Origin: Caldanaerobius polysaccharolyticus DSM 13641
Lineage (GTDB): Bacteria > Bacillota > Thermoanaerobacteria > Thermoanaerobacterales > Caldanaerobiaceae
DNA: 64,000 bases
Direction: 5' to 3'
Assembly: GCF_000427425.1 (NCBI RefSeq)
Contig: NZ_KE386494.1
Coordinates: forward strand, 990,524-1,054,523
The position numbers and the translations under genes were made by a program. How positions within the stretch are numbered: position 1 is the stretch's first letter; each line of letters begins with the position of its first letter. This document shows, one piece after another, positions 14,997 to 17,595 of this stretch. A model generated the notes under the pieces. It searched no databases and was not told the origin of the DNA. It saw nothing but the letters and a program-made list of their open reading frames with translations.

Positions 14997-15071
14997 TTAA
15001 AATCCCCCCTTGTTTATAATATAAATATACAACAATTCACACAAAATCACAACACCTCAAATAAATAAAAA

Positions 15072-15092
15072 TCGAGGTGTTCATCACCTCGA
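15072..15092 (-). terminator. Terminator after the 64-aa ORF
   Basis: An 8-bp perfect stem TCGAGGTG / CACCTCGA with a 5-base loop, followed on the minus strand by TTTTTATTTATT. It separates the small ORF at 15103 from the aminotransferase operon. Confidence 0.75.
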
Positions 15093-15102
15093 CAAAAGCA
15101 AC

Positions 15103-15297
15103 TTATTTAATGAGCGATTTTAATGAATTTATAAGGGATCTAACTTCTTCAGCTTTTTTATCATCCATATATATCTCTGAACGCTTCTTTCTCTCTTCTG
15201 GTGCCAACGTTCCCATTTTTAAATAAATTTTATCCAATATGTCGAAATATCTGTCAATATACGGCGGTACGTTGTTTTTAAATATAGTCAATTTCAT
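15103..15297 (-). CDS. Hypothetical small protein (64 aa)
   Basis: A lysine/glutamate-rich helical protein that I do not recognise (starts MKLTIFKNN, ends SLINSLKSLIK). It begins a few bases after the stop of the truncated reading frame at 15315-15458 and is followed by a clear terminator, so it was probably the last gene of a small operon now disturbed by the IS element. Without homologues it could also be a chance ORF. Confidence 0.45.
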   Translation of the reverse strand: MKLTIFKNNVPPYIDRYFDILDKIYLKMGTLAPEERKKRSEIYMDDKKAEEVRSLINSLKSLIK

Positions 15298-15314
15298 TTG
15301 GCCTATTTGAGCAA

Positions 15315-15458
15315 TTACTTCATCAAATTATCCAATTCCATTATTGCGTTGTGGTATTGTACCCTGTCAACTTCATAAATATGTGAAGAATAACTGTAAT
15401 TAAGAAAAAGTTCATATATCAAAGTTACGATAATCAGTATATGGGCATTTCTTTGTGA
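15315..15458 (-). pseudogene. 3' remnant of a small gene cut by the TnpB element
   Basis: Between the IS right end and a TAA at 15315-15317 the minus strand keeps one open frame with protein-like content (RNAHILIIVTLIYELFLNY, then EVDRVQYHNAIMELDNLMK) but no start codon at the 5' side. The upstream part is missing because the frame runs straight into the element boundary. On the far side of the element, after the SDR gene, a ribosome-site-like AAAGGTG at 16839-16845 precedes a short frame (IRDFLTKT) that might be the lost 5' end; the junction is not in frame as it stands. Family not recognised. Confidence 0.55.
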
Positions 15459-15600
15459 ACCTACTCCATCCTATAGAGGATGGAGCTTCCTACTTCATTG
15501 ACCGCTGCCTGCTGTTATTCACAGCAGGTCTTACACAATCTCCATAGGCGTAACTTCGGGAGGAACCTTCCCTACGAAAAATATCATCACGTTTTTATGC
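15456..15600 (-). ncRNA. Candidate omega (reRNA) guide RNA of TnpB
   Basis: In characterised IS200/IS605 elements the guide RNA covers the 3' end of tnpB and the right end of the element, with the guide taken from flanking DNA. Here 15456-15600 lies between the tnpB stop and the right end, is non-coding, and folds into at least two stems: CCTGCTGT / ACAGCAGG at about 15527-15550 and the terminal hairpin at 15464-15485. The predicted guide would begin at about 15455 reading leftwards (AAAGAAATGCCCATATAC). Position and structure only; no expression evidence. Confidence 0.5.
15464..15485. repeat. Right-end hairpin of the tnpB element
   Basis: Perfect 8-bp arms CTCCATCC (15464-15471) and GGATGGAG (15478-15485) with loop TATAGA, typical of the subterminal palindromes recognised in IS605-type elements. 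Confidence 0.75.
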
Positions 15601-16692
15601 AGCTATCCCCAATTGTCTTAATCCTTCATGAAGTACATTTATCGCTGCATTTATATCTCTATCTATTTCTAACCCGCATTCACATCCGTGTACTCTTACT
15701 GATAAGTCTTTTTCTACTATTTTCCCGCATCTTGAGCATCTCTGCGATGTATACGCTGGATTTACTTTTATGAATATTTTTCCTTCTCTTTCCGCTTTAT
15801 ACTGTAAATACTTATCTAACATTCCCCATCCTACATTTGCTATTGATTTTGCAAGTTTATGATTTTTCATCATATTTTTCACTTGCAAATCCTCAACACA
15901 TATGATGTCATTGTTTTTGACTATGTTATAGCTTATCTTGTGCAGATAGTCCCTTCTCTGATTTGCTACTTTTTCATGAAGCTTCGCTAACCTCTTCTTT
16001 TGCTTTTCTCTATTTTTGCTTCCTTTCTTTTTCCTTGACAGCTGCCTTTGCAGTCTTTTTAGTCTCTTTTCTGCTTTCTGCAGCCATCTCGGGTTTAAGT
16101 ACAATTTTCCTTCTGATGTCGCAGCTATTGAGTTTATCCCTTTATCTATTCCTATAGCTTTTTTTCCTGTGGATACTTTCTCTTTTTCTTCTTCTATTTC
16201 GACTGACAAGTTTATATACCATTTCCCAGCATGGTATTTTATGTTTATTGTTTTTACCTTTTTCGGATCAAAGTCTCTGTGTGCTTTTATTTTTATATGC
16301 CCTATATTTTTTATATACACATATCCTTCTTTGCTGAAATTTCTTTTTGCTTCGCATTGAGGAAGTGTTATCGATGTGTAGTGATATTTGTCTTTGAATT
16401 TGGGATAATTTGCTCGTCCTTCAAAGAAGTTTTTATATGCTCTGTCCAACCTTCTCAATACATCCTGAAGTATTTGCGAATGTACTTCTTTGTATTCCGG
16501 ATGTTCTTTCTTAAATTCTGGAAGCATGTTCTGCTGATCTGTGTATGTGAGTCCTTTGCCGTATTCTTTGTAATGTTTTATCTTCTGTTCCAGTGAATAG
16601 TTGTATAATTTGCGGCACAAATACAGTGTATAAAACAGTTTTTCTTCCTGCTCTTTTGTCGGCTCTATGAGAAAATGTTGACATATCATCAT
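15595..16692 (-). CDS. tnpB: TnpB RNA-guided nuclease / IS605 OrfB
   Basis: A 365-residue TnpB, the RNA-guided DNA nuclease of IS200/IS605 elements and ancestor of Cas12. The RuvC residues appear intact: D183 in GIDKG, E267 in CVEDL and the DRDINAA motif (D344/D346). The zinc ribbon is CSRC (319-322) with C337/C339 in GCECG. The basic helix between RuvC I and II (KRLKRLQRQLSRKKKGS) is also normal. ATG at 16692 follows GGGTGAGAAAAG. The intact catalytic set suggests the protein could still be active with a matching omega RNA. Confidence 0.93.
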   Translation of the reverse strand: MMICQHFLIEPTKEQEEKLFYTLYLCRKLYNYSLEQKIKHYKEYGKGLTYTDQQNMLPEFKKEHPEYKEVHSQILQDVLRRLDRAYKNFFEGRANYPKFKDKYHYTSITLPQCEAKRNFSKEGYVYIKNIGHIKIKAHRDFDPKKVKTINIKYHAGKWYINLSVEIEEEKEKVSTGKKAIGIDKGINSIAATSEGKLYLNPRWLQKAEKRLKRLQRQLSRKKKGSKNREKQKKRLAKLHEKVANQRRDYLHKISYNIVKNNDIICVEDLQVKNMMKNHKLAKSIANVGWGMLDKYLQYKAEREGKIFIKVNPAYTSQRCSRCGKIVEKDLSVRVHGCECGLEIDRDINAAINVLHEGLRQLGIAA

Positions 16693-16766
16693 CTTTTCTC
16701 ACCCTGGCTTTCTAATGATAAAATCCGCTATATTTATTATGACATATTATTCTATTGCATACAATA

Positions 16767-16807
16767 GAAATTCGTCTCCCACCTGTAGAGGATGGGAGAC
16801 GAATTTC
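16767..16807. repeat. Left-end hairpin of the tnpB element
   Basis: A 15-bp perfect inverted repeat, GAAATTCGTCTCCCA (16767-16781) against TGGGAGACGAATTTC (16793-16807). No T-tract follows on either strand, so a terminator is unlikely; position and shared core with the right-end hairpin mark it as the element end. A TTGA directly flanks it, resembling known TAM sequences. Confidence 0.7.
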
Positions 16808-16845
16808 AAGTCTTTGTTAAAAAATCGCGTATTTTAATCACCTTT

Positions 16846-17595
16846 CTATGCCATGGTCCAGCCGCCATCTACCGGAAGGGCCACGCCTGTTATATATGAA
16901 GACATATCCGAAGCCAAAAAGAGGGCTGCATGGGCCACATCTACGGGCTGTGCGAACCTCTTTAATGGTATGGGTGCCAGGAACATCTCCCTTATTTCCT
17001 TATTTTCCAGCACCTCTCTGGTCATGCCTGTCTCTCCAGTGCCAGGGCATATGCAATTGGCTCTTATGTTGTCTTTGGCGTGATCTACAGCTATCGCTTT
17101 GGTCAACGACAGCACACCGCCTTTGGATGCTGCATACGCTACAGCATCAGGAAATCCTATTAAGCCTGCGGCCGATGCAGTGTTTATAATTACCCCACCG
17201 CCGTTTTTCTTCAAATACGGAATAGCATATTTGCACCCTAGGAATACTCCTTTGAGGTTGATATTGATCACCTTATCCCAATCTTCTGACGCCAACGCTT
17301 CTGCATTGCCCGGTATGTATATACCTGCATTGTTAAATATAATGTCCAGTTTACCAAAAGCCTTAATTGCTTCGTCTACAAACCTCTTGACATCCTCTTC
17401 CTTTGATACATCGGCTTTCACGAAGATAGCCTCTCCATTGCCAGCCTTTATATCATCGACGGTTTTTTGCCCGCTCTCGCTGTTGTAGTCTACTGCAACG
17501 ATTTTTGCTCCTTCTCGAGCAAACAGCAGTGATGTCTCTCTGCCAAATCCGGAACCTGCGCCTGTTACTATGGCGACTTTGTCTTTTAAAAGCAT
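16846..17595 (-). CDS. SDR-family NAD(P)-dependent oxidoreductase
   Basis: Classical short-chain dehydrogenase of 249 residues. The Rossmann motif TGAGSGFG (11-18), NNAG (about 88-91), catalytic Ser in NTASAAG, and YAASK (Tyr and Lys) are present, and the C-terminus GGWTMA is common in the glucose 1-dehydrogenase/3-oxoacyl-ACP reductase-like group. An acidic residue after beta-2 (VAVDYN) suggests a preference for NAD(H); this is inference. The substrate is unknown. Monocistronic as it stands, with AGGAGG before the ATG; the IS element lies just downstream. Confidence 0.9.
   Translation of the reverse strand: MLLKDKVAIVTGAGSGFGRETSLLFAREGAKIVAVDYNSESGQKTVDDIKAGNGEAIFVKADVSKEEDVKRFVDEAIKAFGKLDIIFNNAGIYIPGNAEALASEDWDKVININLKGVFLGCKYAIPYLKKNGGGVIINTASAAGLIGFPDAVAYAASKGGVLSLTKAIAVDHAKDNIRANCICPGTGETGMTREVLENKEIREMFLAPIPLKRFAQPVDVAHAALFLASDMSSYITGVALPVDGGWTMA

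What the first reader, a model, noticed from the sequence alone, without database searches (positions are those of the whole stretch)
15456..16812. TnpB-only element with intact nuclease residues and candidate guide RNA
All RuvC and zinc-ribbon residues appear present; hairpins at the two ends share the core CCATCCTCTA(T/C)AGG; the non-coding stretch after tnpB folds as an omega RNA would, and the flank at the right end predicts the guide. TTGA beside the left end could be the TAM. This is a compact, possibly functional RNA-guided nuclease from a thermophile.
Basis: partly seen in the sequence, partly recalled or inferred. Interest (0 to 1): 0.62.

Follow-up and report, generated by a model that had tools for sequence, protein, structure and literature searches.

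The report
TnpB-only insertion sequence with guide RNA

Summary
A TnpB-only IS200/IS605 (IS1341-type) element lies on the minus strand at 15455-16816 (1362 bp). tnpB (15595-16692) encodes 365 aa with D183, E267, D346 and the four zinc cysteines, under strong purifying selection among copies (dN/dS 0.06-0.14). Copies in related genomes and an exact empty site in a same-genus genome fix the ends. The TAM/target is TTTAA (16817-16821), not TTGA, which lies inside the left end: of 34 distinct insertion sites, 33 have TTTAA and 1 TTCAA. The right end closes with GGTTCAC at 15455, so the guide starts at 15454 (AAAGAAATGCCCATATACTG, minus strand). The 121-nt omega-RNA scaffold (15455-15575) folds better than all 200 shuffles, shows covarying stems, and has the GAA/UUC pseudoknot nearly where ISDra2 has it. 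The element interrupts a small host gene. The host genome holds one copy and only two broken Y1 fragments, so it is probably stranded. TAM and terminal motif match a characterised Sulfolobus TnpB: a new member of a known kind. The most interesting by-product is a related genome with 16 mini-elements that keep the omega RNA, each with its own guide, but no tnpB.

The parts
15455..16816 (-). whole insertion element, 1362 bp, IS200/IS605 group, tnpB only (IS1341-type)
   Evidence: exact empty site in same-genus genome G001:C51; ends of copies in other genomes; coordinates
16817..16821 (-). TTTAA: insertion target and predicted TAM, host DNA next to the left end
   Evidence: TTTAA in 33 and TTCAA in 1 of 34 distinct sites found by pattern; retained once in the empty site
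16767..16807 (-). left-end hairpin (17 bp stem, 7 nt loop), presumed Y1 TnpA recognition structure
   Evidence: conserved in copies
15595..16692 (-). tnpB, 365 aa; RuvC D183/E267/D346; zinc C319/C322/C337/C339
   Evidence: dN/dS
15455..15575 (-). omega-RNA (reRNA) scaffold, 121 nt
   Evidence: fold z -3.68; covariation; covariance model R1 hits after tnpB in other genomes
15464..15485 (-). right-end hairpin CTCCATCCTCTATAGGATGGAG (stem 4 of the omega RNA; also DNA hairpin for transposition)
15555..15557 (-). GAA strand of the predicted guide-proximal pseudoknot (pairs with UUC at 15457-15459)
   Evidence: invariant in 20 of 20 sequences; nearly the same place as in ISDra2
15435..15454 (-). predicted guide AAAGAAATGCCCATATACTG (first 20 nt of right flank)
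   Evidence: position from exact RE end; occurs once in own genome even with 3 mismatches allowed

Best explanation
A TnpB-only IS200/IS605-family insertion sequence. Shown by comparison: it inserted 3' of TTTAA in a small host gene without target duplication, and its tnpB and omega RNA are intact by sequence. Inferred from characterised relatives: tnpB mRNA reads into the right end, TnpB trims it to an omega RNA whose scaffold ends in UUCAC and whose next 16-20 nt of flank form the guide. The ribonucleoprotein then cuts TTTAA + guide, which exists only where the element has been lost (empty donor site or an element-free sister copy), so that repair from an intact copy restores the element. 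At the occupied site the guide is preceded by TTCAC rather than TTTAA, which should protect it. Mobility must come from a Y1 TnpA acting in trans on the two hairpin ends; none intact was found in this genome, so this copy is probably stranded but may still be a working nuclease.
For: Family: guided_TnpB model E 5.9e-109; ISDra2 TnpB E 1.7e-55 over residues 10-363; fold matches 8h1j, 8iaz, 8exa as top three. Catalytic and zinc residues present and invariant in 15 of 15 aligned proteins. dN/dS 0.057-0.142 in the 18 of 19 window-versus-copy comparisons that could be computed (the 19th, L081, was saturated at synonymous sites). Ends: empty site in G001 with TTTAA once and no base gained or lost at the junction; TTTAA in 33 of 34 distinct sites, while TTTAA starts at about 0.35% of positions in the window (448 of about 128,000, both strands). 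Right end GGTTCAC next to differing flanks. Omega RNA: fold, 15 of 30 pairs with changes on both sides against 6.9 in shuffles, invariant GAA/UUC pseudoknot as in ISDra2 (PMC10097598, section read). Model R1 matches 62 of 199 related genomes; of 54 hits that I picked from that list, 39 lie 8-162 nt after a same-strand tnpB. Published precedent: Sulfolobus TnpB with TAM TTTAA and guide right after UUCAC (PMC11043419, passages; PMC10640517, passages).
Against: No expression or activity data. No promoter reaching the scan's threshold in the left end (7 promoter-like sites in the region against 6.0 expected by chance). The pseudoknot never varies, so covariation cannot test it. AlphaFold pTM only 0.48, so domain arrangement is uncertain and TM-scores are about 0.5. 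Some sister copies have stop codons or truncations. A published screen found TAM activity in only 27 of 59 TnpB orthologs (PMC10278001, section read), so an intact sequence does not guarantee activity.
Confidence: 0.9

Rival explanations
1. Inactive relic: tnpB still open only because the insertion is recent; no functional RNP is made.
For: No intact Y1 transposase in this genome (2 partial matches, each with a stop); a single copy; several sister copies broken; the interrupted host gene has decayed further by a 148-bp deletion.
Against: Full-length ORF, all catalytic residues, intact omega RNA, ratio of nonsynonymous to synonymous change about 0.1 even against same-genus copies.
Confidence: 0.2
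2. The right-end folds serve only as DNA hairpins for a Y1 transposase, and there is no guide RNA.
For: Both ends carry hairpins sharing one core, as TnpA needs.
Against: Conservation and covariation extend over 121 nt, far beyond the end hairpin, include the ISDra2-like pseudoknot strands, and the same RNA model sits after distant tnpB genes. Several different mini-elements keep this stretch.
Confidence: 0.04
3. Domesticated TnpB or nuclease-dead regulator (TldR-like, recalled) with a host function.
For: No transposase beside it; single copy in the genome.
Against: RuvC residues intact, transposon ends intact, insertion absent in the same-genus genome, guide is simply the insertion flank with no other match in the genome at up to 3 mismatches.
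Confidence: 0.02

Closest known systems
SisTnpB7 / SisTnpB1 of Sulfolobus islandicus IS605 elements (PMC11043419, PMC10640517; passages read)
   Same: TAM TTTAA; for SisTnpB7 the RNA scaffold ends in UUCAC with the guide immediately after it, and a TTCAC-flanked target is not cut; thermophilic setting
   Different: archaeal; in PMC10640517 TTTAA belongs to elements with both tnpA and tnpB, and TTTAT to the solo-tnpB ones, whereas here a tnpB-only element uses TTTAA; sequence identity to ours not measured
ISDra2 TnpB of Deinococcus radiodurans (PDB 8h1j, 8exa, 8bf8)
   Same: homologous over the full protein (E 1.7e-55); same catalytic and zinc residues; omega-RNA order with stem 2, variable stem 3, terminal stem 4 and GAA/UUC pseudoknot
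   Different: TAM TTGAT (PMC8612924, passages), 408 aa against 365; our RNA has an extra local hairpin before the pseudoknot strand; Foldseek identity 31-32% for 8h1j and 8exa
tnpA+tnpB elements of related genomes (L070 in G015, L076 in G006, L077 in G008)
   Same: same ends, TAM and omega RNA; TnpB 88-89% identical
   Different: carry a Y1 tnpA that the window element lacks
PATE-like element of Halanaerobium hydrogeniformans (PMC7290912, section read)
   Same: ends-only element that keeps the whole right end and the end of tnpB, like the mini-elements found here in G015
   Different: one copy, described before TnpB guide RNAs were known; a relative of the mini-elements, not of the window element itself

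Membership tests
TnpB RNA-guided nuclease (IS200/IS605 type) | TnpB domains over the whole protein | tested here: met
   NF040570 364.9 bits against cut-off 100; the narrower exception model NF038281 reached 328.3 bits, below its cut-off of 425; Pfam PF01385, PF07282, PF12323 above cut-offs
TnpB RNA-guided nuclease (IS200/IS605 type) | RuvC D/E/D triad and four-cysteine zinc finger | tested here: met
   D183, E267, D346; C319, C322, C337, C339, all invariant in A3; literature residues in PMC10097598
TnpB RNA-guided nuclease (IS200/IS605 type) | omega RNA at the right end with guide from the flank | tested here: met
   by sequence only: conserved, covarying 121-nt scaffold ending at the exact element end; expression not tested
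TnpB RNA-guided nuclease (IS200/IS605 type) | RNA-guided, TAM-dependent DNA cleavage | not testable with these tools
   needs biochemistry
IS200/IS605 insertion sequence | insertion 3' of a short fixed target without target duplication, subterminal hairpins | tested here: met
   TTTAA at 33 of 34 sites; exact empty site; hairpins
IS200/IS605 insertion sequence | own Y1 transposase TnpA (not required for the IS1341-type subgroup, as recalled) | tested here: not met
   no tnpA ORF between the ends and no Y1 match there; tnpA-bearing relatives share the ends
CRISPR-Cas12f | Cas12f-level match | tested here: not met
   Cas12f2 model 86.5 bits against cut-off 450
CRISPR-Cas12f | CRISPR array next to the gene | not tested
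   no dedicated array search; the repeat search of 15000-17000 listed only pairs of copies

The most novel reading that the evidence does not exclude
In this lineage one TnpB may be programmed by many dispersed guide-only mini-elements. Genome G015 carries 15 mini-elements of 260 bp and one of 181 bp that keep both ends and the omega-RNA scaffold, each with its own flank-derived guide. A few full elements would supply TnpB (and TnpA) in trans, so non-autonomous copies would be guarded against loss by a shared nuclease, like a scattered guide array. The window's TnpB belongs to the same family and should accept these RNAs.
Probability: 0.35. Interest if true: 0.5.

Novelty: new member of a known kind. 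Interest (0 to 1): 0.27.

Why it matters
It is a compact (365 aa) TnpB with a fully predicted guide-RNA scaffold, TAM and native target, and with its ends proved by an empty site, so it can be tested directly, possibly at high temperature. The related mini-elements that keep only ends and guide RNA make it testable whether TnpB protects non-autonomous transposons in trans.

Tried and rejected
TTGA as TAM: rejected. Rfam: the matches within the element were far below the gathering scores, e.g. STnc400 28.5 against 80 and HPnc0580 23.2 against 37, so no curated family names this RNA. Promoter scan: no more sites than chance; an extended -10-like TGTCATAAT seen in most tnpB-only left ends was noted by eye only. 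Guide with a second target in the genome: none at up to 3 mismatches. RNAalifold on the first, wider alignment A1 (19 sequences) gave a weak covariation term (-1.24), I think because three divergent sequences misaligned in the variable hairpin and one in the terminal hairpin; for A2 (20 sequences) I dropped L081, L103, L132 and L025 and added five, so A2 favours closer relatives, and its structure was named partly from these same sequences. One search scanned 59 loci; 36 left ends were found by pattern (34 distinct sites). Left ends of L076, L078, L079, L092 and L098, missed by the pattern, also follow TTTAA; L090 could not be resolved. One search picked a wrong left-end start for L071, L074 and L077, which I disregarded in favour. 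For one search I picked 54 of the hits listed and compared them only with tnpB matches listed, which is capped; the 15 of 54 without a neighbour include genomes whose tnpB list was cut.

Full report
What is there. The finding covers a tnpB gene on the minus strand, 15595-16692, 365 aa. It matches the guided_TnpB family (E 5.9e-109), the Pfam OrfB_IS605, TNB and HTH_OrfB domains, and solved ISDra2 TnpB (E 1.7e-55). The triad D183/E267/D346 and cysteines 319/322/337/339 are invariant among the 15 proteins aligned. A model (pLDDT 83, pTM 0.48) finds 8h1j, 8iaz and 8exa first in the PDB, with TM-scores near 0.5, so the assignment rests mainly on sequence.

Ends, target and guide. The own genome has a single copy, so copies were taken from related genomes. 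Their left ends start right after TTTAA, and their right ends stop at GGTTCAC (a few decayed copies differ), next to flanks that differ from copy to copy. A pattern search of 59 loci found 36 left ends at 34 distinct sites: 33 TTTAA and 1 TTCAA. The decisive result is an orthologous empty site in the only same-genus genome examined: it reads ...GATTTTTTAA|AAAGAAATGCCC..., exactly the window's two flanks joined with TTTAA once and nothing gained or lost at the junction. The element is therefore 15455-16816 (1362 bp) and the guide begins at 15454: AAAGAAATGCCCATATACTG.

What it hit. The joined flanks encode an open frame. In the same-genus genome this is a small gene (187-aa ORF) directly after the SDR gene; the element interrupts it near its start, and the window copy has also lost 148 bp further on.

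The guide RNA. The 121 nt before the right end fold at -43.5 kcal/mol, better than all 200 shuffles (z -3.68). On 20 sequences, 15 of 30 named pairs show changes on both sides (shuffles 6.9 on average, none of 500 as high), and sliding the partners by 1-3 columns drops paired cells from 88% to 31-50%. GAA at scaffold positions 19-21 and UUC at 117-119 are invariant (20 of 20). Counted from the guide they lie at -103 to -101 and -5 to -3; in the ISDra2 structure the pseudoknot joins -105 to -103 with -5 to -3, in a 116-nt scaffold (PMC10097598, section read). The CCUA/UAGG stem and the two hairpins follow in the same order. A covariance model matches 62 of 199 related genomes. Of 54 hits that I picked outside the training clade or nearly so, 39 lie 8-162 nt after a same-strand tnpB; a few of those genomes (G030, G016, G145, G027) had lent sequences to alignment A1 but not to the model.

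Selection and origin. dN/dS between the window tnpB and other copies is 0.057-0.142 in 18 of 19 comparisons (the other was saturated). Three related elements carry a Y1 tnpA before tnpB with the same ends (L070, L076, L077). Most aligned tnpB-only copies share the sequence between left end and tnpB, which suggests one tnpB-only lineage that spread in trans. In the own genome only two partial Y1 matches with stops were found (completeness 96%).

How it probably works. By analogy with characterised TnpB (PMC8612924, passages; PMC11043419, passages; PMC10278001, abstract, part of the Results and one further section), TnpB trims its own transcript, keeps the flank as guide, and cuts TTTAA + guide, i.e. 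the site that has lost the element. Sulfolobus TnpB7 has the same TAM and the same UUCAC end, and does not cut when TTCAC replaces the TAM, which would explain why the occupied site is safe. These steps are inferred; none was tested here.

A by-product. Genome G015 holds 15 mini-elements of 260 bp and one of 181 bp; G017 has one more of 260 bp at a site shared with G015; 11 of these 16 260-bp copies are identical. They are internal deletions of the tnpA+tnpB element: copy L151 is 100% identical to L070 over 109 nt of left end and 159 nt of right end. All keep the omega-RNA scaffold and differ in guide, except the pair at the shared site. Short ends-only relatives with a complete right end are known (PMC7290912, section read). 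My searches (listings only, plus the papers named here and passages of PMC9956272 and PMC11870625) did not show a paper on such mini-elements as guide sources in trans, but most subscription papers are not held, so this is no claim of novelty.

Verdict.

Noticed in passing
L151-L166 (genome G015), L167 (G017): 15 mini-elements of 260 bp and one of 181 bp in G015 (one further 260-bp copy in G017, at a site shared with G015) with both ends, TTTAA target, omega-RNA scaffold and individual guides, but no tnpA or tnpB.
   Followed up: partly
window 15103-15454 and 16817-16841 (minus): Remains of a small gene after the SDR gene, split by the element and shortened by a 148-bp deletion; intact as a 187-aa ORF in the same-genus genome. 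Function unknown.
   Followed up: partly
L104 (G000:C1:146000-151800): Other, divergent TnpB-like ORFs (397 and 333 aa) in the same genome near a broken Y1 transposase fragment.
   Followed up: no
L068 and L073; L152 and L167: Same flanks in two genomes each (G015 with G019, G015 with G017): insertions apparently shared between species.
   Followed up: no
G132:C2:398990-399245: Two omega-RNA model matches in tandem directly behind one tnpB; possibly two guides for one nuclease or a nested insertion.
   Followed up: no
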